A stretch of 64,000 nt of DNA from Thermoanaerobaculia bacterium (GCA_017883205.1 JADGNZ010000010.1:1-64000); one strand, 5' to 3'; positions 6,240 through 61,537 are shown, counted from the first letter of the stretch. Numbers and translations are program-made. The notes: generated by a model from the letters alone, not told the origin.

Positions 6240-6500
6240 TGGACACGTTTCAAAAGATTGGAGCGATCACGCCGGGTCCAACCACCGAGGCGAGACGCCC
6301 CGATGGCCGCGGGCGAGACGCCCACACTCCTCAGCGCTGCGAGGCATGCACGTCGGAAGGAGTGCGGTCGTCTCGACCGCGGGCACTCGGGCGTCCTCGC
6401 CCGAGTGCTGTCAGGGCGGCGGTCGAAATTCGTCGACGTTCTTGCTTGGGGTGAAGTACGGCCTCGTAGTTCTGCCGCGCAGGACTCCTAGCTACCCGCG
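6240..6500. repeat. Dispersed intergenic repeat, copy A
   Basis: Non-coding stretch 6154-6617. About 250 bp closely resembles 54,870-55,104, best between 6276 and 6435. It contains two perfect hairpins: GCGGTCG-TCT-CGACCGC (6365-6381) and an 11-bp stem GCACTCGGGCG with loop TCCT (6383-6408). No believable ORF crosses it. Likely a MITE- or REP-like element. Confidence 0.75.
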
Positions 6501-11531: not shown

Positions 11532-11552
11532 TGGCGGGGCCGACGGGACTCG
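11532..11552. repeat. attL core
   Basis: A 21-nt perfect copy of the tRNA-Asp 3' end (CCA plus acceptor and T-arm half, in reverse complement). Identity with attR stops at 11553 and at 11531. Confidence 0.93.
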
Positions 11553-11749
11553 TACTTGGACAGCCTTCGATGCACGTGTAAGTTACTGATTCTACGATAC
11601 TCCCAATCCGGCAGAAGCTCCAAAACGGGCCCCGATGCCCACACGCAGCCCACGCGGGATGCTACCATTCTTCACGCTGAGAGTGAGCTTCGGCTGGCCC
11701 GCTTCATCGAGGGTCGCGGGGACTTCAACTATCCCTCTTCGGAGGGAAA

Positions 11750-11977
11750 ATGGAAACTAACCTCGATGAGAACTACTGCTACAGCGTGAAAGAACTTGCG
11801 TTCATCTGGAACCTTGACGCGGAGACGGTGCGTAGGATTTTCATCCGGGAGCCGGGTGTGATGATCTTCCGAAACCAGTCCCCCGGAAAGCGGGTCTACC
11901 GCCTCCTCAGAGTTCCAGGCCCAGTAGCCATCCGCGTGGCCCGGCGAGCCACGCTGGACGTCCGGCAAGCCAGTTAG
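11750..11977 (+). CDS. Small HTH protein, putative excisionase
   Basis: 75 aa with CGGAGGG 5 nt upstream. YSVKELAFIWNLDAETVRRIF followed by GKRVYRLLRVPGPVAIRV matches the winged-HTH layout of MerR/excisionase-type DNA binders. It is the first gene inside attL, the usual place for Xis or an early regulator at the end opposite the integrase. The fold call is reasonable; the excisionase role is inference from position. Confidence 0.7.
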   Translation: METNLDENYCYSVKELAFIWNLDAETVRRIFIREPGVMIFRNQSPGKRVYRLLRVPGPVAIRVARRATLDVRQAS

Positions 11978-12020: not shown

Positions 12021-13247
12021 GTGAACAGGCGAGAGTGGGAACGAAAGCAGAGGCGAGCCAGCCGCGAAGAGTGGAAGCGCCTATACCTCTCGTTGGGTGT
12101 CCTCTTTCTGTCCGTCTCGGTCTTGGCCTTGCTGCTTACCATCTCTCGCCACCGACTGGGTGAAGCCAAAGCTCCTCTCATATGCATATTCCTCTTCTCC
12201 GGACTCTTCCTCCTGCCCGGGATCGTCATGCACTTTCGTACTCCTCCGGATGAGGAGCCTCCAGCATCCCCCAGCGCCGTCAAGGAACAGGTTCAGGACG
12301 CCTACGAAGACGTGAAGTACCGGCGACGCGACGCGGAGGAGAGGCGCCGCAAGAAGGTCCTCGGTCGGCTCACGTGGATGAATGTCGTTTTTTTCGGTTG
12401 CGCGATTCTCGGATGGGCTTTCCATTCCTCAGTAACTTTCTACGTGTTCATTGCTCTCGTGGCAGTCCTCGCTCTTTATGGCAAGTTGTATTACGACCGA
12501 CTCGCCTTCGAGTGGGCGGACGAGGACGCCCGCGGGCCAGTTGAAGAAGCATTCGAAGGCGCCGACCCTGCCGATCAGGAGAGATATGACGCCGCACGTG
12601 AAACCCTAATTAACTTGCTTCGGAATCGAGGAGGAGTAGACACTCGTCTCGCGAACAACTTCATCAAGTGGGCGGAGAACCGTTCTCAAAGGTTTCGCGA
12701 TGACCTGCACCGCCTGCCGACGTTCGCGGCGGAGTTCAGCGCGGAATACAGATTCAGCCCCGAGGAAACGCAAGCCCTGCTCGAAGTGCTGCTCGCCCGC
12801 GCGCGCCGACCGCCGGATGTTCCGCGGCAGGGGGATACGTACATCGACATCGTCGTAACCTCCAAGGGAGCTGTGGTCGTGACATGGCGACCGGCAACAC
12901 CAGACGTCGAACAATCTCTACGGGTCGCGCGTGAGAGAGCGAAGCAACCCATCACCCAGGCAATGACGCAGATTCTCCAGGCGAACCCTGAAACCGACCT
13001 CGCGAAGAAGGCGCTCACTTTCGGCGTCGAAGTTATGGAAGTGGAGCGTTCATGGACCGAGGGGAAAGACACGCTGCGCCTCGCGAAGGATGCCGCGAAC
13101 GAGGCAACATCCCTCATGCAGATCGCCGTTGCAGAAGCTGAGTTCATGGCGGCGCACAATCTTAAAGAAGGGACGCCAGAGTACTACGATGTCCAAGCCA
13201 TCTTCGAAAAAGCGAGAAACGCAATCAAGTCTCCGAACCGAGTGTGA
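12021..13247 (+). CDS. Membrane protein partner of HerA-type ATPase
   Basis: 408 aa from a GTG with GGAGGG upstream. There are two hydrophobic pairs: residues ~24-44 and 53-72, then ~117-133 and 137-155. A basic helix lies between them (KYRRRDAEERRRKK). The C-terminal ~250 residues are cytosolic, mainly helical, with a beta segment YIDIVVTSKGAVVVTW. Its stop overlaps the GTG of the ATPase gene (GTGTGA), so they are translationally coupled. A membrane anchor for the pump is a plausible role; no family recognised. Confidence 0.8.
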   Translation: MNRREWERKQRRASREEWKRLYLSLGVLFLSVSVLALLLTISRHRLGEAKAPLICIFLFSGLFLLPGIVMHFRTPPDEEPPASPSAVKEQVQDAYEDVKYRRRDAEERRRKKVLGRLTWMNVVFFGCAILGWAFHSSVTFYVFIALVAVLALYGKLYYDRLAFEWADEDARGPVEEAFEGADPADQERYDAARETLINLLRNRGGVDTRLANNFIKWAENRSQRFRDDLHRLPTFAAEFSAEYRFSPEETQALLEVLLARARRPPDVPRQGDTYIDIVVTSKGAVVVTWRPATPDVEQSLRVARERAKQPITQAMTQILQANPETDLAKKALTFGVEVMEVERSWTEGKDTLRLAKDAANEATSLMQIAVAEAEFMAAHNLKEGTPEYYDVQAIFEKARNAIKSPNRV

Positions 13248-14815
13248 AAGCCGACGACATCCTCCGCGCGCTTGAAGGCGACCGGTCCCATTCCGGTACG
13301 CACATGCACGTCATCGGCTCCTCCGGTGTCGGGAAGTCCTATCTCCTCGACTACCTGCTCCGCGAGGCGGTCCTCTCACCCACGAGGGGCTTCTGTTTTA
13401 TAGACCCGCACGGCACCACGTACGACCGCCTCTTGAACTTCATCGCCCACATCCGCCCGCGTAGACCTGTCATTCTCCTGAACCCGTCAGAGCCTCGCTA
13501 CGTTGTCGGCTTCAATCCCTTCATGAGTCCCGGCGAAGACATCACGACGACCGTGGGGCGGCGCGTCGATGCGACCGTGAAGCCCTGGGGCGCGCAGAAC
13601 ACAAATCCCACGCCCACATTGGAGCGTACCGCAAAGATGGCGTACCACTTCGCCGTCCGAGCCGGCGAGACGCTGCCGAACACCGCTCTTCTCCTCCGCT
13701 TCGCCCATCGAAACATCGCCGACTACGCTTCTTCCATCCTCCGGGAGCCAGAAGACGACGAGGTGCGCGAGGACATCGATGAGCTCCGCATGTCCCGCAC
13801 CGCGAAGGAATGGGGCGACAAGGTGCTCTCGACGAAGAACAGGTTTGCCCGCTTCGTCGGTCACACCGGCCTTCAGACGTTCCTCGGCCTCAAGGAAGGG
13901 AACATCGACATCCAGAAGCTCATCGAGCAGAACGCCATCATCCTCGTGAACCTTCGAAGATCTGGTTATCTCGATTTCGAGCCGGCGCGCGTGTTCGCGT
14001 CGCTCCTCATCAACGAGTTCCGCGAGGCCGCGATGCGCCGCGCTGGAACGCGCAAACACTTTTTCCTCGCGCTTGATGAGTTCCAGGAATACATCACCTT
14101 CGACCTCCCCGCGATGCTCGACGAAACGAGGAAGGGTGGCATTCACCTCATCATGGCTCATCAGCGTCTTGGACAGTTGGAGAACGACGCCCAACTTCAG
14201 GATGCCATCTTTACGAACGCCCAGGTCAAAGCCGTCTTCGGTGGACTGCCTTATAAGTCCGCCACGATTATGGCGAACGAGATGTTCCTCGACCGTATCA
14301 ATGAGCGGGACATAAAAGAGACCTTCTACGGCCAAAAGGTTATCGGCTACGACGTCTCGGAATACGAGAGCGAGAGCGTGACGGGCTCCGAAAGCTCCTC
14401 CGAAAGCCACAGCTCGGATGAGCGGGAGACCGTGACCGCCTCCGGGTCGGCGTCTACCACCAAGACCCGGCAAAGGGTTTCGACCCCGATCTACGGCGAG
14501 ACCGTGACCTCACGCTCAGAATGGAACCGCGAGGAAAAAGTCTCTCGCCTCGCCGCAGTGCTCCGAAACCAGCCGAGGCAGAACTGCGCCATCAAAATGC
14601 CCGGCCAGAAGCCTGTGCAGTTCGTCGTTCCCGACATACCTGACCACGCGACGCCGGAGGCGGTTGAAACCTACACCGTGCGGACCTACGAATCTCTCTC
14701 CGCGCTCCCGCTCGCGGAGGCGCGTCTTGCCGTTCAGAAATCGCGCGAAGACTTCCTCTCCAAAGCGAAGCCGCGCAGAAACAATCCGGGCTCCTCGAAC
14801 CGACCGAAACTCTGA
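13244..14815 (+). CDS. HerA/TraG-type DNA-pumping ATPase 1
   Basis: 523 aa from GTG. Walker A GSSGVGKS (25-32) is followed by the family-typical FIDPHGTTYDRLL; Walker B is FFLALDE (273-279), followed by the glutamine-bearing HLIMAHQRLGQL. The HerA/VirD4 superfamily forms hexameric motors that move DNA or end processing. An acidic Ser-rich stretch (about residues 370-405) looks like a flexible linker before the C-terminal part. The start overlaps the membrane gene's stop. The next gene has its own promoter-like sequence. Such an ATPase is usual in conjugative elements and rare in phages. Confidence 0.85.
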   Translation: MKADDILRALEGDRSHSGTHMHVIGSSGVGKSYLLDYLLREAVLSPTRGFCFIDPHGTTYDRLLNFIAHIRPRRPVILLNPSEPRYVVGFNPFMSPGEDITTTVGRRVDATVKPWGAQNTNPTPTLERTAKMAYHFAVRAGETLPNTALLLRFAHRNIADYASSILREPEDDEVREDIDELRMSRTAKEWGDKVLSTKNRFARFVGHTGLQTFLGLKEGNIDIQKLIEQNAIILVNLRRSGYLDFEPARVFASLLINEFREAAMRRAGTRKHFFLALDEFQEYITFDLPAMLDETRKGGIHLIMAHQRLGQLENDAQLQDAIFTNAQVKAVFGGLPYKSATIMANEMFLDRINERDIKETFYGQKVIGYDVSEYESESVTGSESSSESHSSDERETVTASGSASTTKTRQRVSTPIYGETVTSRSEWNREEKVSRLAAVLRNQPRQNCAIKMPGQKPVQFVVPDIPDHATPEAVETYTVRTYESLSALPLAEARLAVQKSREDFLSKAKPRRNNPGSSNRPKL

Positions 14816-14830
14816 ATCCCCAAGCCCCCC

Positions 14831-14858
14831 TTGTGCGGCGCAACGGGCGCGCTATGGT
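14831..14858 (+). promoter_or_regulatory. Promoter for replication-relaxation gene, leaderless
   Basis: TTGTGC-N16-TATGGT, with the ATG only 6 nt after the -10 element, so transcription would start at or next to the start codon. No ribosome binding site is present. Confidence 0.55.
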
Positions 14859-14864
14859 TAATCC

Positions 14865-15692
14865 ATGCCCGCGCGCCGCTCCGAAAAAGACGACGAACTC
14901 CTTCGCCTCATCACCGATTGGTACTTCCTCACAGCCGACGAGCTCGCGTATCTCACCGGCCGGAACGTCGTCGCGATTCGCGCACGTCTTCAGCAGCTCG
15001 GCACCGGCAAACGGAAGCTCGACGGCCGCGTTCTCGATGGCTTGAATTACCTCTACTCGATGGACACGCCGGCCGACAAGTTCGGGCCGAAGATCCACTA
15101 TCCGGCGCAGAAAGCGTTCGACCTAGCCTATGACGAGGGATGGGTAGCGGAGCGCGTGAACGTCGAGCAGCGCACGCCGAAGAACATGCCGCACGACCGC
15201 ATCGTCGTCGGCTATCGCTTCGCGCTGCTTAACGCGCTGGGCGACCGCCTCAGATGGACGCAGCATTACTACAACCTGCACCACCGCTGGGCCGACGGTG
15301 AGGACGACCATATCTACGCGGACGGCATGTTCTACATCGACAACCAGCCGAGCTATCCGACGTTCTTTCTTGAGGTCGAGAACACGAAGCAGGCGAAGTA
15401 CGACGCCCGCGGGCTCTCCGCAGGGATGCGGAAGGCCGAAGGCTACATGACGTACTACGAGCGCGGCCTCTTTCAGGAGAAGTTCCACGCGCAGGACTTC
15501 CGCGTCGTCTTCGCAGTGAACACCTGGCGGAAAGCAGAGAACCTTGCGAAGACGCTCGCCGGGCTCCCCACCATCGACCCCATGAAGTTTTGGATAACGG
15601 ATTTCGCCGGTCTCCGCGCCGGCGCCGAGGACAAGGTCTACATCACGCCGAAGAACTTCGAGCACAAGCGCTATGCACTCGTCGATGCCTAG
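14865..15692 (+). CDS. Replication-relaxation family protein
   Basis: 275 aa. The N-terminus reads as a winged HTH (LLRLITDWYFLTADELAYLTGRNVVAIRARLQQL), followed by the conserved core of the replication-relaxation family (FGPKIHYPAQKAFDLAYDEGW, then TFFLEVENTKQAKYDARGLS). Members occur in Gram-positive plasmids and integrative elements, often beside TraG/FtsK-like ATPases, and may act in plasmid replication or relaxation of DNA; biochemical evidence is thin. The PTFFLEVENTK segment looks like the nuclease-type strand seen in related proteins. It lies between two HerA-type ATPases, which supports one DNA-processing module. Confidence 0.75.
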   Translation: MPARRSEKDDELLRLITDWYFLTADELAYLTGRNVVAIRARLQQLGTGKRKLDGRVLDGLNYLYSMDTPADKFGPKIHYPAQKAFDLAYDEGWVAERVNVEQRTPKNMPHDRIVVGYRFALLNALGDRLRWTQHYYNLHHRWADGEDDHIYADGMFYIDNQPSYPTFFLEVENTKQAKYDARGLSAGMRKAEGYMTYYERGLFQEKFHAQDFRVVFAVNTWRKAENLAKTLAGLPTIDPMKFWITDFAGLRAGAEDKVYITPKNFEHKRYALVDA

Positions 15693-15821
15693 CGAAAGGA
15701 CGCACGCTTGCTACGATTGAATGGTCTGCGACCCGGCCATCGCGCAGGGTCAACCCTCCGGCCTGCCTGCCCGGAAGTGCGGCTTTCGCCGAGTCTGGGC
15801 AGGAGGCTAGAGGCCACTCCC

Positions 15822-17129
15822 ATGTACAAGATCGGCGAACTCGCCGCCACTCCTCATGTCCCCCTCTCGTTCGATGAGACCCGCCACGCGGCCATCTTCG
15901 GCGCGACCCGTTCCGGGAAGTCCACGATGCTCGCGAACATCGCCATCCAGAAGATGCGCGCAGGCGGGCCGCTCTTCGTCTGGGACCCGCATGGCACGCT
16001 GAACGATGACCTCCTCTGGTACGTCCCGCGCTCGCGCATCCACGACGTCATCCTCGTGGACCCGCTCGACGCCGAGAAACAGATAACGCTGAACCCCCTC
16101 CGGCCGAAGGACGAACCCGCGGCCCTCGACCTCATCGAGATACTCGCGAGCGTCGGCGGGGAAAACTCCTTCATGGCGCGGAGCCGCGACATCGCCACGA
16201 ACTTCCTCCTTGCCGCGATCTACACGCTTTCGAGCCCGACGCCCTTCGACCTGGCCCTCATGTTCCGCTTCGAGGACTACGCGAAGGACATCTTCGAACG
16301 GTGCCCGGAGCCCATGTACGCCGATTGGGGGAAGAAGCACTTCGCCCGAACCTCGAAGCAGAGGGACGACATCGAGGCCGCGCCGAGCAACAAGGCGAAC
16401 ACCCTCGTGACGCTCACGAGCCTGCGGCACGTCTTCAGCCAGCCGACAGGAGGGCTCGACTTCGACGAGTGCATCAGGACGAACAAGATCGTCCTTTTCA
16501 GCCTGCGCAAGGGCCAGCTCGGGGAGGAGGCCGCGAACATCCTCGGCTCCATCTCGCTCCGCATGTTCCTCGCCGCAACGCTCAGAAGGGAGCCGCACAC
16601 CGGCGAGCACGCGATGGCTTTGGTGGACGAGGCGCACACCTTCTCGAAGCTCGGGAACGCCATCGACCTTTTCCTCTCCGAGTCCGCGAAGTTCAACACC
16701 GCCTACATCCTCGCGGACCAGATATTCACGCAGTTCTCGGAGATGACCCGCAAGGAGATTTTCGCGAACGTATCGAGTCTCGTTTCCCTTCGCGTCTCTT
16801 CCGAGGATGCCCAGGTCCTCGGCCGGGAGATGCGCATGGACGAGCCGAACGCGCTCATCTCGCTCGCCACCGGCGAGTTCTGGGCGAAGCTCGTCCTTCC
16901 GACCGTAGCGCGAACTGCCCAGCATGCCTTTACACCCCGGTGGCACAGATCGGACGACCGCAAGCACAAGTTCCCGCAGTTCCTCGCACGAAAGGAGGGC
17001 AACGAAGCCACACCGGAGGAGGTCATCCGGTACAGCAAACAGCACTACGGAACACGCCGGACCCTCATCACCGAACGAATCACCCAGAGGTTAGAAGTCG
17101 CGTACGCGGCGGAAAGGAGGAGCCAGTGA
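15822..17129 (+). CDS. HerA/TraG-type DNA-pumping ATPase 2
   Basis: 435 aa from ATG (MYKIGELAAT). Walker A GATRSGKS (27-34) is followed by LFVWDPHGTLNDDLL; Walker B is MALVDEAH, followed by AYILADQIFTQF. Same superfamily as the upstream ATPase but clearly diverged, without its Ser-rich insert. The 129-nt gap before it has an extended -10 (TTGCTACGAT, 15708-15717) and AGGAGG at 15801-15806. It ends in a GTGA overlap with the AT-hook gene. Two paralogous pumps around a replication-relaxation protein suggest a hetero-oligomeric or two-step machine. Confidence 0.85.
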   Translation: MYKIGELAATPHVPLSFDETRHAAIFGATRSGKSTMLANIAIQKMRAGGPLFVWDPHGTLNDDLLWYVPRSRIHDVILVDPLDAEKQITLNPLRPKDEPAALDLIEILASVGGENSFMARSRDIATNFLLAAIYTLSSPTPFDLALMFRFEDYAKDIFERCPEPMYADWGKKHFARTSKQRDDIEAAPSNKANTLVTLTSLRHVFSQPTGGLDFDECIRTNKIVLFSLRKGQLGEEAANILGSISLRMFLAATLRREPHTGEHAMALVDEAHTFSKLGNAIDLFLSESAKFNTAYILADQIFTQFSEMTRKEIFANVSSLVSLRVSSEDAQVLGREMRMDEPNALISLATGEFWAKLVLPTVARTAQHAFTPRWHRSDDRKHKFPQFLARKEGNEATPEEVIRYSKQHYGTRRTLITERITQRLEVAYAAERRSQ

Positions 17130-17293
17130 GTGCAGACGTGATGCAGCCGGTATTCGATGCCCGGAAGACCCTCGCCGATGCGACCCAACGAGCGATTGAT
17201 TCGCTCCTGAAGCAGCGGGACGCGATCGACGAGAAGTTGAAGGACCTCGGCCATGGCAAGCGCGGAAGACCGCCGAAAGAGCCCGGAAAATAA
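17126..17293 (+). CDS. Small AT-hook-like DNA-binding peptide
   Basis: 55 aa from GTG overlapping the ATPase stop, with GGAAAGGAGG upstream. A short coiled helix (TQRAIDSLLKQRDAIDEKLKDL) ends in HGKRGRPPKEPGK, an AT-hook core (RGRP flanked by basic residues). Last gene of the ATPase operon; a terminator follows. DNA binding is inferred from the AT-hook only. Confidence 0.7.
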   Translation: MSADVMQPVFDARKTLADATQRAIDSLLKQRDAIDEKLKDLGHGKRGRPPKEPGK

Positions 17294-17314: not shown

Positions 17315-17340
17315 GGGCGGCCTTGAGCCGCCCGTTTTAT
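17315..17340 (+). terminator. Rho-independent terminator of ATPase operon
   Basis: GGGCGGC-CTTGA-GCCGCCC, 7 bp perfect, followed by GTTTTATT. Confidence 0.85.
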
Positions 17341-17415
17341 TAAGGTTCAATTAAGGGGCATTCTTTCCAGTACGACGGTCCGCAGTTTCATCTGGTTGCG
17401 CAGATGGAACACAGC

Positions 17416-17589
17416 AGTGCTCGCGCGCAACCGCGGGCACTTTTGTTTCTTGAGATGGATGGAATGAGCGTCGCTGCTCCGCCATGGAAGGATTGCAACC
17501 CCATGACGCCATCCATCTCAGGGCGCAAAGCTCTGAGGATCGCCTGCTGGCCGGGGCGCCGGATTGATTTTTCCGGGAAGGCGGCCAGC
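17416..17589. ncRNA. Candidate structured non-coding RNA
   Basis: The gap 17294-17771 has no credible gene. Three strong helices follow each other: 17416-17425 with 17432-17441 (10 bp, one G-U, then a T-rich tract); 17451-17462 with 17509-17520 (12 bp perfect, closing 46 nt); and 17546-17553 with 17582-17589 plus 17559-17563 with 17572-17576 (8 and 5 bp around a symmetric 5x5 internal loop). Strand and ends are unknown; no known RNA family was recognised. Confidence 0.5.
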
Positions 17590-18307: not shown

Positions 18308-19378
18308 TCAGGCGGGCGCCGCTTCGAGGAGGGAAAGAGCGTCGGAAGTAAGCGTGAGCGGCACTTCCGGCTCTGGTGGGATTCCGAGGAATACTCTGAG
18401 GCTTGCCGGGCGGATTGCGTCAGGTTGCACACCGTCTGCGAGCGTCTTCACCTCGGCATGAGGTAGGCGCGATTTCAGGTCAGCGGCACCCTTCCGTCCC
18501 GGTTCATCGCCGTCGAAAAGGATGCTGATTTCGCGGAACTTCGAGAGCTGGCGCACCTGGTCCGGCGTCGCGTAATTCGACATGATTGCGACCGCCTTCA
18601 TGATGCCGGCGCGGATGCACGCCAGGACGCCCCACATCGACTCGCAAACGATGACCGCATTCCCCTCTACTCGGTGCAGGTTGTAGAGCACCTTTCCACG
18701 CGCGAATCCAGCCGGGAAAAGCCACCGCTCGAGGTTCGGACATTCGGGAGCCACTTGCGCCGGGTCCTCGTCATGGAGCGAGTATTCGACGCGGCGCCCG
18801 GCGTACCCGATGAGCTGCCCGGCGGCGTCATGAATCGGGAAGACGACCCGCCCGGACATGGAGCCCTTTCCGGGGAAAAAGCCGACGCCGAGGTACTCGC
18901 ACTCCTCCTCGTCGAAACCACGGACGGTCAGGTACGGATGGACGTGTTGGATCCCCTGAAGTTGGAAGCCGAGCGGCTTATTTACGGTAGGCGCTTCGAC
19001 CACTTCGCGCGGAGGAACTTTCGGAGCGGGCGCGGAAGACCCTTCGGAGAACGGACCAAACCACGAATCCAAGAGTTCCCCGGCCTGACGAAGACCGCAC
19101 TTTTCCATAAAGCCGACGAACTCAATGAGATCACCCCCCTTTTTCTTTCCGCCACGAGCCGCGACGCATGACGCCGAGTGACACGACCACACCCACTGAC
19201 CCTTCAAAAGGGACGCGTGGAACGACTTGTCCTTTTCCGAGCTGTGCACCGGAAGCGGACAATGCCCCTCTTTGCGGGACTGATTCGTGCCCTTGAGCTC
19301 GACCTTGTACCGGGCCAGGACATCCAAGAGACTGACTGACTGCTTGATGCGCCGAAAATCCGGACGACCATCTGCCAT
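18308..19378 (-). CDS. DNA primase with CHC2 zinc finger and TOPRIM
   Basis: 356 aa, with AAGGAGGTG upstream of the ATG. The N-terminal zinc finger reads CPLPVH, then WVWSCHSASC (about residues 40-70), the CHC2 pattern of DnaG-type primases. The TOPRIM core follows: AVIVCESMWGVLACIRAG (Glu) and ISILFDGDEPGRKGA (DxD). No helicase domain is attached. Residues 150-215 (SMSGRVVFPIHDAAGQLIGYAGR) match the catalytic-core N-terminal part. It primes replication of the element. It is transcribed opposite to its neighbours, from a promoter whose spacer is a 21-bp palindrome (19442-19462). Confidence 0.88.
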   Translation of the reverse strand: MADGRPDFRRIKQSVSLLDVLARYKVELKGTNQSRKEGHCPLPVHSSEKDKSFHASLLKGQWVWSCHSASCVAARGGKKKGGDLIEFVGFMEKCGLRQAGELLDSWFGPFSEGSSAPAPKVPPREVVEAPTVNKPLGFQLQGIQHVHPYLTVRGFDEEECEYLGVGFFPGKGSMSGRVVFPIHDAAGQLIGYAGRRVEYSLHDEDPAQVAPECPNLERWLFPAGFARGKVLYNLHRVEGNAVIVCESMWGVLACIRAGIMKAVAIMSNYATPDQVRQLSKFREISILFDGDEPGRKGAADLKSRLPHAEVKTLADGVQPDAIRPASLRVFLGIPPEPEVPLTLTSDALSLLEAAPA

Positions 19379-26991: not shown

Positions 26992-27138
26992 ATGTCCCGG
27001 AAGTACGACCGCGCCCGGCAGACCCACGTCGCCGCGCTCGACATCCTCAAAGCCTCCGTCCGTCCGAAACCCCGGTGGCTTCCGAGGTTTCTCTGGGCGG
27101 CGATCTACTGGACCGCCACGCGCATCATTTTCAAATGA
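26992..27138 (+). CDS. Small basic protein before terminase
   Basis: 48 aa, MSRKYDRARQTHVAALDILK then PRWLPRFLWAAIYWTATRII. A basic helix followed by a Trp-rich hydrophobic end. The start sits 6 nt after a -10 element and the stop overlaps the TerS start (ATGA at 27135). First gene of the packaging operon; role unknown. Confidence 0.55.
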   Translation: MSRKYDRARQTHVAALDILKASVRPKPRWLPRFLWAAIYWTATRIIFK

Positions 27139-27548
27139 GGAAGCACCCCGGCGGCCGGCCACACAAGTTTCAAACGTTGAAAGACCTCGAACAGGCGATA
27201 GACGCTTTCTTCAAAGATTGCGACAAGAAGGGCAGGCCCTACACCGTGACCGGGCTGGCTCTCGCTCTCGACACTACCCGGGAAACCCTCCTCGACTACG
27301 AGAAGAACAACCCGAAGCTCGCTGAGTTTTCTGACGCCATAAAAAGGGCCAAGCTCCGCGTCCAGAATTACGCCGAGATCCAGCTCTTCGGCCGGAATCC
27401 GACCGGCCCCATCTTCGCCCTGAAGAACTTCGGCTGGCGCGACAAGCAGGAGATCGACCACACCACCGGAGGCAAGCCGCTCTACCTCCCGTCCGAAATC
27501 CTCGCGAAGAATGGTCTTGAGCCCGGCTCAGACGGAGATCGTTCGTGA
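27135..27548 (+). CDS. terS: Terminase small subunit
   Basis: 137 aa, MRKHPGGRPHKFQTLKDLEQ. An HTH-like N-terminus (YTVTGLALALDTTRETLLDYE) is followed by helices and NPTGPIFALKNFGWRDKQEI, the phrase common to P22 gp3-type and related small subunits (FxLKNxGWxDK). It recognises the packaging site and recruits the large subunit. Overlaps the gene before (ATGA) and the large subunit after (38 nt). Confidence 0.85.
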   Translation: MRKHPGGRPHKFQTLKDLEQAIDAFFKDCDKKGRPYTVTGLALALDTTRETLLDYEKNNPKLAEFSDAIKRAKLRVQNYAEIQLFGRNPTGPIFALKNFGWRDKQEIDHTTGGKPLYLPSEILAKNGLEPGSDGDRS

Positions 27549-28731
27549 CCGGCACAGGTTCAGGGTCGTCGATTGCGGCCGGCGATTCGGCAAGACCACC
27601 CTCGCAAGCCTTGAGATAGCTGGCAAGGCCGTCTCGAAGAACGACGCGCGGGTCTGCTACGTCGCGCCGACCTATCAGCAGGCGAGGGACATCCTTTGGC
27701 GGGACCTCAAGCGCACCCTCCGGCCTGCAGCCCTTTCCATCAACGAATCCCGGCTGGAGATCGAGGTCCGCACGAAGGACGGCGGCACGGGCCTCGTTTG
27801 GTTGCGCGGCTGGGAGTCCATCGAGACGCTACGCGGCCAGCGCTTCGACTTCCTCGTGCTCGACGAAGTCGCGTCGATGCGGAACTTCTGGCTCCATTGG
27901 CAGGAGGTTCTCCGCCCGACCCTGACCGACACGCGCGGCGAGGCGCTCTTCCTCTCGACCCCGAAGGGCTACAACCACTTCTACGACCTGTACGGCCTCG
28001 AAAGGACCGACCCGGACTTCAAGAGCTTCCACTTCACGAGCTACGACAACCCGCACATCCCACCGGAGGAGATCGAGGCGGCGAAGCGCCAGCTCACCGA
28101 GGACCGCTTCGCCCAGGAGTACCTCGCGGACTTCAGGAAGGTGCACGGGCTCGTCTACAAGGATTTCGACCGGCAGCGTCACGTCACGACCACGCTTCCC
28201 ACTAACCGTGCGGAACGCATTCTAGGCGTGGACTTCGGCTTCACGAATCCCACGGCCGTCCTCACGATCGACAAGGACCGTGACGGCACCTACTTCGTCG
28301 TTTCTGAGTGGTACAAGCCGGGGAAAACCAACATCGAGGTCGTCGAGTACGCGCGCTCGCAGCAGCCGAACGCGATCTACCCGGACCCCGCGGAGCCCGA
28401 CCGCATCGAGGAGATGCGCCGCCACAGCCTGAACGTCCGCGATGTGTCGAAGGACATCGAGGCCGGCGTCACGAAGGTACAGGAGCTCTTCCGCGCGAAC
28501 CGCATCAAGGTCCATCCCTCATGCGTGAACCTCATCTCAGAGCTTGAAAGCTACGCCTACCCCGAGCGGAAGCCGAATCAAAACGAGGCGGAAACGCCGG
28601 TCAAGGAGAACGACCATGCGTGTGACGCGCTCCGCTACGCGCTTTTCATGAACGCGCAGGGTGGGACGGGCTTCATCCCGCCGCCGACCACAGGACTTGT
28701 CAAACCCTTCTACCCTCAGATCGGGGTGTAA
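27511..28731 (+). CDS. terL: Terminase large subunit
   Basis: 406 aa. Walker A is GRRFGKTT (23-30), Walker B FLVLDE (114-119), and the coupling motif LFLSTPKGYN follows. The RNase H-like nuclease begins at GVDFGFTNP (Asp241), with a further Asp in NDHACDALRYAL near the C-terminus. It pumps DNA into the prohead and cuts it. The ATG lies inside terS. A roughly 560-nt non-coding stretch with the parS-like site follows. Confidence 0.95.
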   Translation: MVLSPAQTEIVRDRHRFRVVDCGRRFGKTTLASLEIAGKAVSKNDARVCYVAPTYQQARDILWRDLKRTLRPAALSINESRLEIEVRTKDGGTGLVWLRGWESIETLRGQRFDFLVLDEVASMRNFWLHWQEVLRPTLTDTRGEALFLSTPKGYNHFYDLYGLERTDPDFKSFHFTSYDNPHIPPEEIEAAKRQLTEDRFAQEYLADFRKVHGLVYKDFDRQRHVTTTLPTNRAERILGVDFGFTNPTAVLTIDKDRDGTYFVVSEWYKPGKTNIEVVEYARSQQPNAIYPDPAEPDRIEEMRRHSLNVRDVSKDIEAGVTKVQELFRANRIKVHPSCVNLISELESYAYPERKPNQNEAETPVKENDHACDALRYALFMNAQGGTGFIPPPTTGLVKPFYPQIGV

Positions 28732-33430: not shown

Positions 33431-34519
33431 ATGAGTGCATACGCAACAAAGCTCGCCGAAGGTTTTTCGGCGAAGCTCTCAAAGGAACTGTACGCGACCG
33501 CTCTCTTCGACCAGCTCGTCAACCGAGACTACGAAGGGGACATCGTGAATGTCGGCTCTTTGCTGAACATCCTCGATTTCGCGCGGCTCTCTGAGAAGGA
33601 CTACTCGGGTTCCAACCTCTCGGTTGATGACCTGAACGAGAACAACGGCCAGCTCTCGATCGATAAGCAGAAATCGTTCTACTACCGCATCAAGAGCATC
33701 GACGTTTTCAAATCCTACATCAAGAACCCGCAGTCCACGCTCGTGCAGCAGACCGCCGAGGAACGCCGGAAGAACATCGACATTTATGTCTTTGGCAAGT
33801 ACGGCAAGACCGCGGCAGGCCAGCGCATCGGCACGGACTACACGACTGGCACCGTCACCGTCACCACGGGCACGGGCGCCGTCGTCGGTTCCGGTACGAC
33901 CTTCACCGCGGCGATGGTCGGTCGGGGCTTCAAGGCCACCGGCCACACCAAGTGGTATCGCGTCGCGACCTTCACGGACACGACCCATATCACCATCGAG
34001 AACGACCTGGACGACGTGGCTTCCACCTACGACGGCGGCTCCATCTCTGGAGGCACCGCGTACGTCATCGAAGCGAACACGCCCGTCCAGATGACCACCT
34101 CGAACGCGCTCCAGCTCTTGCTCCAATTAAAGCAAAAGCTCGACGCGGCGGAAGTGCCCGCAGCGGACCGCGTGCTCATCCTCCCCACGGAGGTCGGCAC
34201 CGTTCTCCCTCGCGGCACGAACATCAACATGGCGGTCCCCGCCGTGTACGATTCGCTCATCAAGACCGGATGGCTGACCGACCTGGCCGGCTTCCGCATC
34301 TACATGAGCGCCCGTCTCTCCGGCGACAACACCAATGGCTATCACAGCATCGGTGCGCAGAAGGGATGGCAGACCTTCGCTGACAAGGTGATCAAAGCCC
34401 AGATGGAAGAGGACCTGATCGGGAACTTCGGTTCCGCCTTCAAGGACCTTTACGTCTACGGCTCCAAGGTCAAGGACAACCGGCGCAAATTCGGCGCTGA
34501 GCTGTTCGTCTACGTCTAG
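33431..34519 (+). CDS. Major capsid protein
   Basis: 362 aa. The N-terminal helix (ATKLAEGFSAKLSKELYATA), the phrase FDQLVNRDYEGDIVNVGSLL and the C-terminal AFKDLYVYGSKVKDNRRKFG fit P22/gp5-like coat proteins of the HK97 fold. An inserted beta domain with repeated Gly/Thr (GTVTVTTGTGAVVGSGTTFT) spans about residues 137-215, like the I-domain or a surface domain. Flanked by leader and trailer hairpins. Role by position and size is strong; subfamily less so. Confidence 0.8.
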   Translation: MSAYATKLAEGFSAKLSKELYATALFDQLVNRDYEGDIVNVGSLLNILDFARLSEKDYSGSNLSVDDLNENNGQLSIDKQKSFYYRIKSIDVFKSYIKNPQSTLVQQTAEERRKNIDIYVFGKYGKTAAGQRIGTDYTTGTVTVTTGTGAVVGSGTTFTAAMVGRGFKATGHTKWYRVATFTDTTHITIENDLDDVASTYDGGSISGGTAYVIEANTPVQMTTSNALQLLLQLKQKLDAAEVPAADRVLILPTEVGTVLPRGTNINMAVPAVYDSLIKTGWLTDLAGFRIYMSARLSGDNTNGYHSIGAQKGWQTFADKVIKAQMEEDLIGNFGSAFKDLYVYGSKVKDNRRKFGAELFVYV

Positions 34520-50378: not shown

Positions 50379-51518
50379 TTACCCGCCCCCTTGAATCACT
50401 TTGAGTCTCGGTTTCGGTTCTTCCCACGTCATTCGCACGGCTTCTTCGAGCTTGTCCTGCCGCGCCTTGATCCACGGCGCGTAGCTCTGTTCCGTCACCT
50501 TCGTCGAAGTGTGACCGAGGAGCTGCGAGACGGTTTCGAGAGGAACACCTTTGAGAAGCAACGACACAGAGAAGGTGTCCCGGAACCTGTGCGCGTGGCC
50601 GCCTGTCACCTGCGCGATCTCGAAGATTCGGGCAAGCGTCCGCTTCCAGCTCTTCACGGCTGTCTCGAGCTTCCCCGTGCCGGTCCAGAAGTAGTACGGC
50701 CGGTCAGGGAAGAGCTCGTGCAGCTCGCGGAGCGCCTGGACGACGAACGGCGGAAGGGGAACGTAGACCGGCACCCGCGTCTTGAACTGCATGTGCAGAA
50801 AGAGGCGCCCGTCCTCCGTCACGCGGTCCTTCGCCAAGCCCGTAGCGTCCGAGATGCGGAGCCCGGAGTAGCGGAGGAGGTAGACGTACGCGAGGACCCG
50901 GATGGGATTGTCCTTGCCGTAACTCCCTTGAATCTTGAACCCTCGCGCCGCTTCAAAGACGCGGTTCACTTCCTCATCCGAGAAGGGGAGCGTCGGCGGC
51001 GTGTCCACCTTCGGCGCCTTCATCGCGGCCGTCGGGTTCTCCGTGACCCACTTCGCCGCGGTGCAAAAGCGGAAGAAGGAGCGCAGCCGCTCGAACTTCT
51101 TGAGCGCCGTGAGCGGCGCGTAGTTCCAGCCCGCGCGGTAGCGGATCATCGCGCGCACGTCGAGCCGGTTCATCATCTTCAGCCCTTCGGATTCGCACCA
51201 CGGAAGGAGCGAGTCTTTGAGGAGGACGCGATGAAGGCGGACGGTGGATGGTCGCACGCGCGCGGCGACATCCGACAGGTAGAGCTCGACCGCCTCTTTG
51301 ACGGTCACGGGCTCCACGCGGTCGCCGCCGACCCTGCCGGCGCGGTTCCACTCGGCGATGAGGTTCTGAGCCGCTTCCCAGGACGTGAGGTTCAGACCTC
51401 TCCGAACCTCTTCGGTGCCGAGCGTGCCCTCGACGTGGATGGGACACTGACAGCGGCGGAAGTACCTATCCTTCTGAGCGCAACGCTTGAGGTGGCGACG
51501 AAAGATGGTGAGAGCCAT
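50379..51518 (-). CDS. int: Tyrosine-type site-specific integrase
   Basis: 379 aa from MALTIFRRHL (GGAG 7 nt upstream; a longer ATG at 51548 exists). The N-terminus has a CAQKDRYFRRCQCP zinc-knuckle-like arm; the core-binding domain is at ~65-160. Catalytic set: Arg in YSGLRISDATGL, a Lys in the beta hairpin MQFKTRVPVYVPL, His-x-x-Arg in HAHRFRDTFS, His in LLGHTSTKVTEQ and Tyr in EQSYAPWIK. It joins attP to the tRNA-Asp 3' end. It lies downstream of, and in the same direction as, the tRNA. Confidence 0.93.
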   Translation of the reverse strand: MALTIFRRHLKRCAQKDRYFRRCQCPIHVEGTLGTEEVRRGLNLTSWEAAQNLIAEWNRAGRVGGDRVEPVTVKEAVELYLSDVAARVRPSTVRLHRVLLKDSLLPWCESEGLKMMNRLDVRAMIRYRAGWNYAPLTALKKFERLRSFFRFCTAAKWVTENPTAAMKAPKVDTPPTLPFSDEEVNRVFEAARGFKIQGSYGKDNPIRVLAYVYLLRYSGLRISDATGLAKDRVTEDGRLFLHMQFKTRVPVYVPLPPFVVQALRELHELFPDRPYYFWTGTGKLETAVKSWKRTLARIFEIAQVTGGHAHRFRDTFSVSLLLKGVPLETVSQLLGHTSTKVTEQSYAPWIKARQDKLEEAVRMTWEEPKPRLKVIQGGG

Positions 51519-51608: not shown

Positions 51609-51685
<77 letters not shown>

Positions 51686-54313: not shown

Positions 54314-54696
54314 CATGCATGAAGCTCTGAGTTTCATGCATGGAACTCCGAGTCTCATGCATGAAACTCCGAGTCTCATGCATGGAACTCCGAGTCTCAT
54401 GCATGGAACTCCGAGTCTCATGCATGAAGCTCAGGGTCTCATTCATGAGACTTCGAGTCTCATGCATGAAGCTCCGAGTCTCATGCGTGGAACTCCGAGT
54501 CTCATGCATGGAACTCGCGGGTCTCATGCATGGAACTCAGAGTCTCATGCGTGAAACTCATGGGTCTCATGCATGAGACTCAGAGTCTCACTCATGAAAC
54601 TCATGGGTCTCACGCATGAGACTCCAAGTCTCACGCATGAAACTCACTGGTCTCATGCATGAGACTCAGAGTCTCACGCATGGAACTCAGGGGTCT
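54314..54696. repeat. 21/22-bp minisatellite, 18 copies
   Basis: Unit CATGCATGGAACTCCGAGTCT. Eighteen head-to-tail copies. Copies 1-9 are 21 bp; from copy 10 every even copy is 22 bp (for example CATGCGTGAAACTCATGGGT plus CT). The 22-bp copies shift the frame, so the open stretches of Met-His-Glu/Gly-Thr repeats are not coding. Gap 54273-55104 otherwise holds the dispersed repeat. Confidence 0.9.
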
Positions 54697-54869: not shown

Positions 54870-55104
54870 TTCAGATCTGGACCATTGGAGCTGTCAGGTC
54901 GGATCCAACCATCGAGGCGGGACGCCCCGATGGCCGCGGCCGAGACGGCCACACTCCTCTGTAGCCCCGCCGCCCGAGGAAAGGAGTGCGGTCGTCTCGA
55001 CCGCGGGCACTCGGGCGTCCTCGCCCGAGTGCTGTCAGGGCGGAGGTCGAAATTCGTCAACCCCTTGCGTGAGGTACGGGCTTCGTAGTTTCTGTCGCAA
55101 ACTC
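54870..55104. repeat. Dispersed intergenic repeat, copy B
   Basis: Same family as 6240-6500, best between 54901 and 55058, with the same two perfect hairpins (GCGGTCG stem and GCACTCGGGCG stem). Ends beside the TIR gene. Confidence 0.75.
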
Positions 55105-60002: not shown

Positions 60003-60010
60003 CTCGGAAA

Positions 60011-60071
60011 CGTAGGTCGGACTCTCTAGTCCGACTGGCCCGTGTTGTCGGACTTGAGAGTCCGACCTACG
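60011..60071. repeat. REP-like palindrome, copy 1
   Basis: 16-bp perfect arms CGTAGGTCGGACTCTC (60011-60026) and GAGAGTCCGACCTACG (60056-60071), with an inner AGTCCGAC/GTCGGACT stem. Confidence 0.85.
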
Positions 60072-60085
60072 TAAACAAAAAACCA

Positions 60086-60289
60086 ATGACCGGCACCGAA
60101 ACCTTCACCACTGCGCTTCAAAACCTGGCCACGCACAAGCTGCGGACGGCGCTGACGATGCTGGGGATGATCTTCGGCGTCGGTGCCGTCATTGCGATGC
60201 TGTCTCGGAAACGTAGGTCGGACTCTCTAGTCCGACTGGCCCGTGTTGTCGGACTGGAGAGTCCGACCTACGTAAACAAACCTACGTAA
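60086..60289 (+). pseudogene. Truncated copy of the permease gene start
   Basis: The first 40 codons (60086-60205) encode the same 40 residues as the intact permease downstream, with ten nucleotide differences, all synonymous. Codon 41 onward runs into the second REP-like palindrome and stops at 60289. Looks like the remnant of a former full-length paralogue cut off by the repeat. Confidence 0.8.
60212..60272. repeat. REP-like palindrome, copy 2
   Basis: Near-identical to 60011-60071 (one change in the right inner part), followed by a second CCTACGTAAACAAA word. It interrupts the truncated permease fragment. Confidence 0.85.
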
Positions 60290-60301
60290 ACAAAACCACC
60301 A

Positions 60302-61537
60302 ATGACAGGCACCGAGACCTTCACCACCGCGCTTCAAAACCTGGCCACGCACAAGTTGCGGACGGCGCTGACGATGCTCGGGATGATCTTCGGCGTCGGA
60401 GCGGTGATCGCGATGCTGTCGATCGGTGCGGGGGGCGAGAAGAAGGCGCTCGAAGCGATCGGCAGGCTGGGATTGCGTAACGTCATCGTCCGTGCCAAGA
60501 CCGTCAAGCCGGACGAGCGCGCGGAGCTGCGCAAGAAATCGCTCGGCGTGTCGTTGCGCGATGGCGAGGCAATCAGCGAAGCGGTGCCCGGCGTCGAGAT
60601 GGTTCTTCCGCGCGTCGAGGTGAAGCCGTACAAGATCATCGCTCCCGGCACCAAGACGAAGGCAAAAGTCCTCGGCATCTCGTGGCGCTATCCGCGCGTG
60701 GCCACGGTGTCGCTTGCCGAGGGACGGATGTTTGATATGAGGGACGAGCAGGAGTACGCGCAGGTCTGCGTCATCGGCCAGGAAGTGCGCCGCAGTCTCT
60801 TCGGATACGGACCGGCCATCGGCAAGCATCTCAAGGTCAACGACGTCTGGCTCGAGGTGATCGGGCTCTTCACCGGCGATGAGCCGGGGTCGGCGTCGTC
60901 GAAAGATGTTCCGGTCGCATCGAACGCGCAGGAGATCTGGATTCCGGTGTCGACGGCGATGCGCAAGTTCGACCGCGATCCGCTCGATGCGCCGGTCGAC
61001 GAGCTGCTCGTCGAGCTGAAGGAAGGCGCTTCCACGCGCGACGCGGCGACGCTCATCCATCCGCTGCTGGAGCGGCTGCACGGCGGCGCAGACGACTACG
61101 AGATCGTGGTGCCGGAAGCGCTGCTCGAACAGAGCCGGCAAACGCAGAGGATCTTCTCGATCGTGATGGGCTCGATCGCCGGCATCTCGCTTCTCGTCGG
61201 CGGTATTGGCATCATGAACATCATGCTGGCCTCGGTGATGGAGCGAACGCGCGAGATCGGAATCCGCCGCGCCATCGGCGCGCGCAAGCGGGACATCCGC
61301 GCGCAATTCGTGATCGAGTCGTTCACCATCAGCCTGATCGGCGGTATGTCCGGCATCATCATCGGCATCATCCTGGCGCGCCTCGTGGCCGCGTATGCAG
61401 GATGGCCAACGGTGATCACGGTGAGCTCGCTGCTGCTGTCGTGCGGCGTCTCGATCACAGTGGGGTTGGTGTCGGGGATCTATCCGGCGGCGCGGGCCTC
61501 GGAGCTCGATCCAATTCAGGCGCTGCGATACGAGTAG
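60302..61537 (+). CDS. MacB/FtsX-type ABC transporter permease
   Basis: 411 aa. N-terminal helix (ALTMLGMIFGVGAVIAMLSI), a MacB periplasmic core (about 45-285, containing PRVATVSLAEGRMF and VNDVWLEVIGLFTGD), and three C-terminal FtsX helices (IVMGSIAGISLLVGGIGIMN; ISLIGGMSGIIIGIILARLV; LLLSCGVSITVGLVSGIYPA). The ends ARASELDPIQALRYE and ERTREIGIRRAIGARKRDIR are family signatures. There is no fused ATPase domain and no ATPase gene nearby, so the energising subunit must be elsewhere. A truncated copy precedes it. Confidence 0.92.
   Translation: MTGTETFTTALQNLATHKLRTALTMLGMIFGVGAVIAMLSIGAGGEKKALEAIGRLGLRNVIVRAKTVKPDERAELRKKSLGVSLRDGEAISEAVPGVEMVLPRVEVKPYKIIAPGTKTKAKVLGISWRYPRVATVSLAEGRMFDMRDEQEYAQVCVIGQEVRRSLFGYGPAIGKHLKVNDVWLEVIGLFTGDEPGSASSKDVPVASNAQEIWIPVSTAMRKFDRDPLDAPVDELLVELKEGASTRDAATLIHPLLERLHGGADDYEIVVPEALLEQSRQTQRIFSIVMGSIAGISLLVGGIGIMNIMLASVMERTREIGIRRAIGARKRDIRAQFVIESFTISLIGGMSGIIIGIILARLVAAYAGWPTVITVSSLLLSCGVSITVGLVSGIYPAARASELDPIQALRYE

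What the first reader, a model, noticed from the sequence alone, without database searches (positions are those of the whole stretch)
12021..17293. Conjugation-type DNA pump module inside a phage
Five consecutive genes encode a four-TM protein, HerA/TraG ATPase 1, a replication-relaxation protein, HerA/TraG ATPase 2 and an AT-hook peptide, with GTG/TGA coupling at two junctions. Such sets belong to conjugative elements, not to phages with their own packaging motor. The element may be a phage-ICE hybrid, a phage that segregates or transfers as an episome, or a carrier of an undescribed HerA-based defence system.
Basis: partly seen in the sequence, partly recalled or inferred. Interest (0 to 1): 0.78.

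Follow-up and report, generated by a model that had tools for sequence, protein, structure and literature searches.

The report
Phage-borne relaxase and DNA-pump module
A bacterial virus that sits in its host's chromosome carries, besides its own DNA-packaging motor, a small gene set of the kind plasmids use to nick and pump their DNA through a membrane; three other viral genomes carry the same set or part of it, one of them with an unrelated packaging motor, so it is a real part of these viruses and raises the testable question whether they can also spread by cell-to-cell DNA transfer.

Summary
The five genes at 12021-17293 are real. They lie inside an integrated 40-kb prophage bounded by 21-bp att repeats (11532 and 51609, 3' end of tRNA-Asp) that has its own TerS/TerL, capsid gene and integrase. 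The two ATPases (P2, P4) are VirD4-class coupling proteins, not VirB4 and not terminase; structure and profile tests put them nearer to TrwB/DotL than to HerA. P3 is a divergent Replic_Relax (MOBC-type relaxase) protein with a winged HTH. P1 is a translationally coupled four-TM protein; P5 a 51-55-aa AT-hook peptide. The order recurs in three viral contigs: IMGVR_3300044839_000032 (tRNA-Phe prophage with an unrelated terminase), IMGVR_3300014745_000136 (relaxase, ATPase, AT-hook; contig cut) and IMGVR_3300006917_000008 (TM, ATPase, relaxase, ATPase, near ArdC). It is thus a conserved phage cassette, not a random insertion. No VirB4 was found in the phage or its near-complete host genome, so 'conjugative pump' is too strong: a mobilisation-type relaxase/coupling module (IME-like) fits best. 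Relaxase/ATPase genes in Bacillus phages are published, so this is a fuller variant of a known kind. Transfer itself is untested.

The parts
11532..11552 (+). attL core: 21-bp direct repeat TGGCGGGGCCGACGGGACTCG, copy of the tRNA-Asp 3' end
11750..11977 (+). P0: 75-aa small protein, read as an HTH/excisionase-type protein from its sequence only (no Pfam hit); first gene of the operon; counterpart in L205 (E 8e-31)
   Evidence: role inferred
12021..13247 (+). P1: four-TM protein with large cytoplasmic C-terminal part; GTGA overlap with P2; conserved in position and TM content, not in sequence
13244..14815 (+). P2: VirD4/TrwB-class coupling ATPase without TM (Walker A GSSGVGKS, Walker B LALDE); 40% identical to the counterpart in phage contig G491
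14865..15692 (+). P3: divergent Replic_Relax/MOBC-type relaxase-like protein; MarR-like winged HTH plus putative PD-(D/E)XK-like nuclease part
15693..15821 (+). intergenic hairpin element shared with phage contig G460 (identical TTGCTACGATT and GCGGCTTTCGCCG, 3 two-sided stem changes); candidate oriT or leader RNA
15822..17129 (+). P4: second VirD4/TrwB-class coupling ATPase without TM (Walker A GATRSGKS); 44% identical to the counterpart in G460
17126..17293 (+). P5: 51-55-aa AT-hook peptide (KRGRPPK), GTGA overlap with P4; counterpart in G460 (54 aa, KKRGRPTK)
17315..17441 (+). two terminator-like hairpins after P5
   Evidence: consensus scan only
18308..19378 (-). phage primase, convergent neighbour of the module; conserved beside it in G460 and G491
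27135..28731 (+). phage terminase small and large subunits: the phage's own packaging motor
33431..34519 (+). major head protein (phrog_267)
50379..51518 (-). tyrosine integrase at the other end of the prophage; counterparts in G489 and G491
51609..51629 (+). attR core inside tRNA-Asp (51609-51685, - strand)

Best explanation
The block is a conserved phage cassette for processing and pumping DNA of the mobilisation (relaxase plus coupling protein) type. Shown: an operon in a tRNA-integrated prophage encoding a small putative HTH protein, a membrane protein, two VirD4-class ATPases, a MOBC-type relaxase-like protein between them, and an AT-hook peptide. Inferred: on excision P3 nicks the circular phage DNA at a site on it (candidate: the 15693-15821 hairpin); P1 holds the P2 (and/or P4) hexamer at the membrane; the two motors draw the relaxase-DNA complex to and through the membrane, with P5 bending or holding the DNA. 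Since the phage has no VirB4 or pore, export would use the secretion channel of a co-resident conjugative element, as integrative mobilizable elements do. This would give the phage a second, virion-free route of spread.
For: ATPase class: profiles of the P2 and P4 families hit the VirD4 of an actinobacterial conjugation cluster over most of the ATPase domain (2.4e-22, 8.2e-51) but its VirB4 hardly (0.53, 2e-6); best solved relatives are DotL/IcmO and TrwB; the P2 model's top structural hits are TrwB, DotL and Cag-beta, ahead of HerA and VirB4. Relaxase: PF13814 in phage counterparts, which CONJscan types as MobC (PMC5357655); MOBC is a PD-(D/E)XK relaxase class whose prototype has an N-terminal winged HTH (PMC12857230); P3 shows a winged HTH (Z 10.9), E170 is invariant and the D, D/E and K expected of such enzymes can be traced by eye in most rows, and its nuclease part meets nickase N.BspD6I weakly. 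Conserved order in phages, one with an unrelated terminase. Same gene kinds in transfer loci: Embleya plasmid PrgI-VirB4-VirD4-Replic_Relax-NlpC/P60; G185 element with ParAB, Replic_Relax and a TM protein overlapping an ATPase gene. G468 carries an ArdC-type gene near the module. An IME class with VirD4 CP, MobC relaxase, excisionase and integrase is known (PMC5357655).
Against: No VirB4 in the phage and none found in the 99.7% complete host genome or its family, so a helper would have to arrive. No oriT shown. P3 itself falls below the PF13814 cut-off, and the nuclease fold rests on a weak match (E 0.08). P1 is not conserved in sequence. G468 has the module but no integrase was recognised, so excision coupling is not general. 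DNA transfer has not been observed for this or any related phage.
Confidence: 0.5

Rival explanations
1. Intracellular DNA processing: P3 is a replication initiator or nickase and P2/P4 are membrane-tethered translocases that help the excised phage genome replicate (rolling circle), resolve or segregate, with no transfer between cells.
For: The module is next to the phage primase in three of the four phages and the prophage has an SSB. G185 pairs the same kinds of genes with ParA/ParB, primase and SSB. Bacillus phage authors read their Replic_Relax/FtsK genes as plasmid replication and maintenance genes (PMC9658697, PMC9703825). No VirB4 in the host.
Against: No partition gene was noticed in this prophage; it is integrated at a tRNA gene. 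Two VirD4-class motors plus a membrane protein are more than known rolling-circle initiation needs. Closest homologues are coupling proteins, not FtsK.
Confidence: 0.25
2. Defence or superinfection exclusion: a membrane-bound HerA-like ATPase pair with a nuclease attacks incoming DNA.
For: The module lies just inside attL, where accessory genes often sit. All six ATPases tested match the PADLOC mad8 profile (4e-9 to 5e-17) and most weakly match HerA profiles. P3 looks like a nuclease partner.
Against: mad8 appears to be a member of the same ATPase superfamily and no other complete MADS set was hit; P3 has no PADLOC hit. The ATPases lack the HerA N-terminal extension (they start about 20 residues before Walker A) and rank nearer to TrwB. 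PF13814 is a relaxase family.
Confidence: 0.12
3. The ATPases assist virion assembly or DNA ejection/packaging (a second packaging motor).
For: FtsK-HerA ATPases package DNA in some membrane-containing viruses (established knowledge).
Against: The phage has TerS/TerL and a head protein. The module persists where the terminase is unrelated and is absent from most related-terminase contigs (though these may be fragments).
Confidence: 0.05
4. Self-sufficient DNA export without T4SS: the P1/P2/P4 assembly is itself a membrane DNA pump, comparable to Thermus TdtA transjugation or Streptomyces TraB.
For: TdtA, a HerA-like hexamer with a nuclease partner in an element inserted in a tRNA 3' end, pushes DNA out without a known T4SS (PMC5365140). 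No VirB4 in host or phage. Two motors and an own membrane subunit.
Against: The ATPases are VirD4-class rather than HerA or FtsK/TraB type. No pore or wall-crossing component recognised.
Confidence: 0.08

Closest known systems
MOBC mobilisation modules (CloDF13 MobB/MobC; pAD1 TraX; streptococcal IME class 8: VirD4 + Replic_Relax + excisionase + integrase)
   Same: Relaxase of the PF13814 family beside a VirD4-class coupling ATPase, in an integrative element with a small putative excisionase-type protein and integrase (PMC5357655, PMC12857230).
   Different: Here two coupling ATPases flank the relaxase, the TM part is a separate protein, an AT-hook peptide is added, and the carrier is a phage with a tyrosine integrase; the P3 sequence is divergent.
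Bacillus Tyrovirus/Kirov/Izhevsk plasmid-like region (gp17 T4SS protein, gp18 replication-relaxation, ParM)
   Same: A T4SS-type protein gene next to a Replic_Relax gene in a tailed phage (PMC9703825, PMC10454425).
Bacillus phages Novomoskovsk/Bolokhovo (FtsK/SpoIIIE, Replic_Relax, TrbC/VirB2)
   Same: Pump ATPase followed by a Replic_Relax-annotated protein in a phage (PMC9658697).
   Different: The ATPase is FtsK-type (PF01580), the 'Replic_Relax' protein is 91 aa with no Pfam hit here; single ATPase.
Actinobacterial conjugation cluster (Embleya plasmid: PrgI, VirB4, VirD4, Replic_Relax, NlpC/P60)
   Same: VirD4-class ATPase next to Replic_Relax; P4 family matches it at 8e-51.
   Different: It has VirB4, PrgI and a wall hydrolase, all missing in the phage.
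Thermus TdtA/NurA-like transjugation element
   Same: tRNA-inserted element with a DNA-pump ATPase and a nuclease partner (PMC5365140).
   Different: TdtA is HerA-type with a NurA-like nuclease; generalised DNA donation; no phage genes described.

Membership tests
MOBC relaxase / Replic_Relax (PF13814) | sequence match above the family's gathering score | tested here: inconclusive
   P3 18.3 bits, below the 25.3 cut-off; its phage counterparts reach 30.3 and 65.6 and align with it (35% and 16% identity)
MOBC relaxase / Replic_Relax (PF13814) | N-terminal winged helix-turn-helix | tested here: met
   AF2 model pLDDT 81.8; MarR-type wHTH over residues 1-97, Z up to 10.9
MOBC relaxase / Replic_Relax (PF13814) | PD-(D/E)XK nuclease core with acidic/lysine active site | tested here: inconclusive
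   E170 invariant in nine proteins, with D, (D/E) and K traceable by eye in most rows; fold match to nickase N.BspD6I only E 0.08
MOBC relaxase / Replic_Relax (PF13814) | site-specific nicking at an oriT | not testable with these tools
   only a candidate hairpin at 15693-15821
Type IV coupling protein (VirD4/TrwB) | FtsK-HerA class ATPase with intact Walker A and B | tested here: met
   P2 GSSGVGKS/LALDE, P4 GATRSGKS/ALVDE
Type IV coupling protein (VirD4/TrwB) | closer to VirD4/TrwB than to VirB4, HerA or FtsK | tested here: met
Type IV coupling protein (VirD4/TrwB) | membrane anchoring | tested here: inconclusive
   no TM in P2 or P4; a separate TM protein P1 overlaps P2 by 4 nt, as in the G185 element
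Type IV coupling protein (VirD4/TrwB) | binds relaxase and DNA and is needed for transfer | not testable with these tools
   needs biochemistry and mating assays
Conjugative element (ICE/T4SS) | VirB4 ATPase and mating-pore genes | tested here: not met
   P2 and P4 are the only pump-family ATPases seen in the prophage; no VirB4 in the host genome
Integrative mobilizable element | integrase, att repeats, relaxase/coupling genes, no own pore | tested here: met
   by homology only
Integrative mobilizable element | oriT and mobilisation by a helper | not testable with these tools
   needs a mating assay; not claimed as a member on homology alone
Tailed temperate phage | terminase, head protein, integrase within att sites | tested here: met
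HerA-NurA / HerA defence systems | HerA with N-terminal HAS-barrel and a known partner | tested here: not met
   P2 and P4 start about 20 residues before Walker A; no complete PADLOC system
Phage-plasmid | partition and plasmid replication genes, extrachromosomal prophage | tested here: not met
   integrated at tRNA-Asp; no partition gene among the prophage proteins scanned (not every small ORF was scanned)

The most novel reading that the evidence does not exclude
A lineage of temperate phages with two horizontal routes: virions, and a relaxase-guided, two-motor membrane DNA export that is part of the phage itself and is swapped as a cassette (with primase, SSB and integrase) between phages with unrelated capsids.
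Probability: 0.3. Interest if true: 0.85.

Novelty: new variant of a known kind. Interest (0 to 1): 0.55.

Why it matters
Phages and conjugative elements are usually treated as separate routes of gene spread. A conserved relaxase-plus-coupling-protein cassette in temperate phages that also keep their own terminase would mean that some phages may travel both as virions and as mobilised DNA, escaping receptor limits. Even if the module only serves replication, it shows where 'relaxase' and 'coupling protein' calls in genome surveys mislead. The module is compact (about 5 kb) and the question can be tested with a mating assay.

Tried and rejected
Terminase or portal-associated identity of the ATPases: rejected. 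Random insertion into one prophage: rejected, order found in three other viral contigs. P2 as a VirB4 with P1 as PrgI/VirB3 (suggested by the Embleya order): tested with profiles and rejected for the ATPases; P1-PrgI similarity only 0.026, over the TM helices. Known RNA family at the P3-P4 gap: none. Direct searches of viral contigs with P2, P4 and with the G468 ATPase, and of 84,980 genomes with the P4 alignment, found no further close relatives; the primase and terminase queries brought the informative contigs. Search with P3 over 396 genomes of the phylum found only the window itself. tblastn in the phage collection gave only distant ATPases. PNAS 2013 paper on TraX and the Kirov and Izhevsk records were not held. 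The laid-out host genome was not available, so gene calls in relatives were made with a small home-made caller and are approximate.

Full report
WHAT IS THERE. The five genes are at the stated place: P1 12021-13247, P2 13244-14815, P3 14865-15692, P4 15822-17129, P5 17126/17138-17293, all on the + strand, with GTGA overlaps P1/P2 and P4/P5. A 75-aa gene at 11750-11977 precedes them; its counterpart in another phage shows it belongs to the set. Two terminator-like hairpins follow P5.

WHERE IT LIES. A 21-bp repeat occurs at 11532 and 51609; the second copy is the 3' end of tRNA-Asp. Between them are a tyrosine integrase beside attR, TerS and TerL, a major head protein, an exonuclease, an endonuclease/resolvase-type gene, SSB and primase. 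So the module is the attL-proximal part of an integrated phage of about 40 kb, and would lie next to the integrase gene in the excised circle. The genome (6.37 Mb, 99.7% complete) holds no other match to P4 besides P2.

RELATIVES. Contigs were found through the terminase, portal and primase genes, then searched for the module. (a) G460, IMGVR_UViG_3300014745_000136: TerL 89% identical; the contig begins at the relaxase gene and continues with P4 (44% identical), a 54-aa AT-hook peptide and the convergent primase. (b) G491, IMGVR_UViG_3300044839_000032: 75-aa protein (8e-31), two-TM protein, P2 (40% identity over 551 aligned positions), P3 (8e-27), P4 (5e-45), primase (8e-99), SSB and integrase counterparts, bounded by 24-bp repeats in the 3' end of tRNA-Phe; its terminase is not related to the window's by these searches. 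(c) G468, IMGVR_UViG_3300006917_000008: circular by a 123-bp end repeat, TerL 37% identical; TM protein, 167-aa protein, ATPase, Replic_Relax (8e-18), ATPase, with an ArdC-type gene further on; no integrase recognised. In the window and G491 the module travels with primase and integrase while the terminase and head genes differ, so it is a cassette maintained in phages. Most other contigs with related terminases lack a P4 match, but they may be fragments.

WHAT THE PROTEINS ARE. P2 and P4 are VirD4-class: best solved relatives by profile are DotL/IcmO and TrwB; the P2 model (mean pLDDT 64.9, so only the core is trusted) meets TrwB at 1.9e-10, then DotL and Cag-beta, and HerA and VirB4 later; against an actinobacterial conjugation cluster both families match VirD4 and not VirB4. 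In a tree the window and G491 P2 form one clade and the three P4 another (support 99/97 and 100/98), so the pair is old and not a recent duplication; the deeper placement, and the G468 proteins, are uncertain. P3 is below the PF13814 cut-off on its own, but counterparts pass. Its model shows a MarR-like winged HTH (Z 10.9), and the C-terminal part meets the nicking enzyme N.BspD6I weakly. In an alignment of nine such proteins E170 is invariant and the D, D/E and K positions expected of PD-(D/E)XK enzymes can be traced by eye in most rows. PF13814 is the relaxase family that CONJscan calls MobC (PMC5357655), and MOBC relaxases are PD-(D/E)XK-type with an N-terminal winged HTH in TraX (PMC12857230). 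P1 has four TM helices; the counterparts have one or two and no detectable sequence similarity, so only position and membrane nature are conserved. P5 is named AT-hook from its KRGRPPK core only.

CIS ELEMENT. Within the operon the 129-nt gap between P3 and P4 keeps a strong hairpin (z -2.3 in the window, -1.7 in G460), an identical TTGCTACGATT and an identical GCGGCTTTCGCCG, with three two-sided changes among 14 shared pairs. It matches no Rfam family. It may be an oriT, a leader RNA or a promoter region; two sequences do not decide, and G468 has no such gap (its two genes overlap).

HOW IT MOST LIKELY WORKS. Best supported is relaxase-guided pumping of the phage's own DNA at the membrane, as in mobilizable elements. 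Steps shown: gene content, families, conserved order, integration. Steps inferred: nicking by P3, anchoring by P1, export through a helper's secretion channel. The main weakness is that no VirB4 was found in this host genome, and among 61 relatives only one genus of another family has one; a helper would have to come from outside, or the module does something inside the cell. Rivals are listed with their tests.

NOVELTY. Phage-borne Replic_Relax and T4SS/FtsK genes are published for Bacillus phages (PMC9703825, PMC9658697, PMC10454425); a record checked here has an FtsK-type ATPase and a 91-aa 'Replic_Relax' protein without Pfam match. The window's set is fuller: two VirD4-class motors around a full-length relaxase-like protein, with TM and AT-hook partners, in tRNA-integrated phages. 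Relatives of the single parts occur in integrative elements of the same phylum. It is a new variant of a known kind.

Noticed in passing
window 54334-54670: Tandem array of 21-bp units (TCATGCATGGAACTCCGAGTC-like) with palindromic ATGCAT cores, in the host DNA right of the prophage.
   Followed up: no
window 60003-60079 and 60204-60280: A repeat of about 75 bp with internal inverted repeats, followed by partly repeated sequence at 60113 and 60329 near the start of ORF 60302-61537; looks like a local duplication.
   Followed up: no
window 6357-6419 and 54981-55043: A stretch of about 60 identical bases shared by two distant host loci.
   Followed up: no
L061, L077, L080, L082, L085, L087, L089: Relatives in the same class carry a recurrent uncharacterised set: XRE-type HTH, about 250-aa protein, about 480-aa VirD4-like ATPase, with a Replic_Relax gene often divergent nearby and tyrosine recombinases; possibly a family of integrative elements.
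   Followed up: partly
L048/L097 (G185:C43): Integrated element with SSB, primase (2.5e-38 to the phage primase), ParA/ParB, Replic_Relax, TM protein overlapping an ATPase gene, and RadC: shares replication genes with the phage.
   Followed up: partly
window 11580-11700; L205 16874-16887: The att flank of this phage shares GTGTAAGTTACTGA and neighbouring words with the G491 prophage; probably integrase arm sites.
   Followed up: partly
G491 (L205, L217, L218) against the window prophage: Two tRNA-integrated phages share integrase, SSB, a small regulator, primase and the module but not the terminase: capsid genes swapped around a common replication/integration core.
   Followed up: partly
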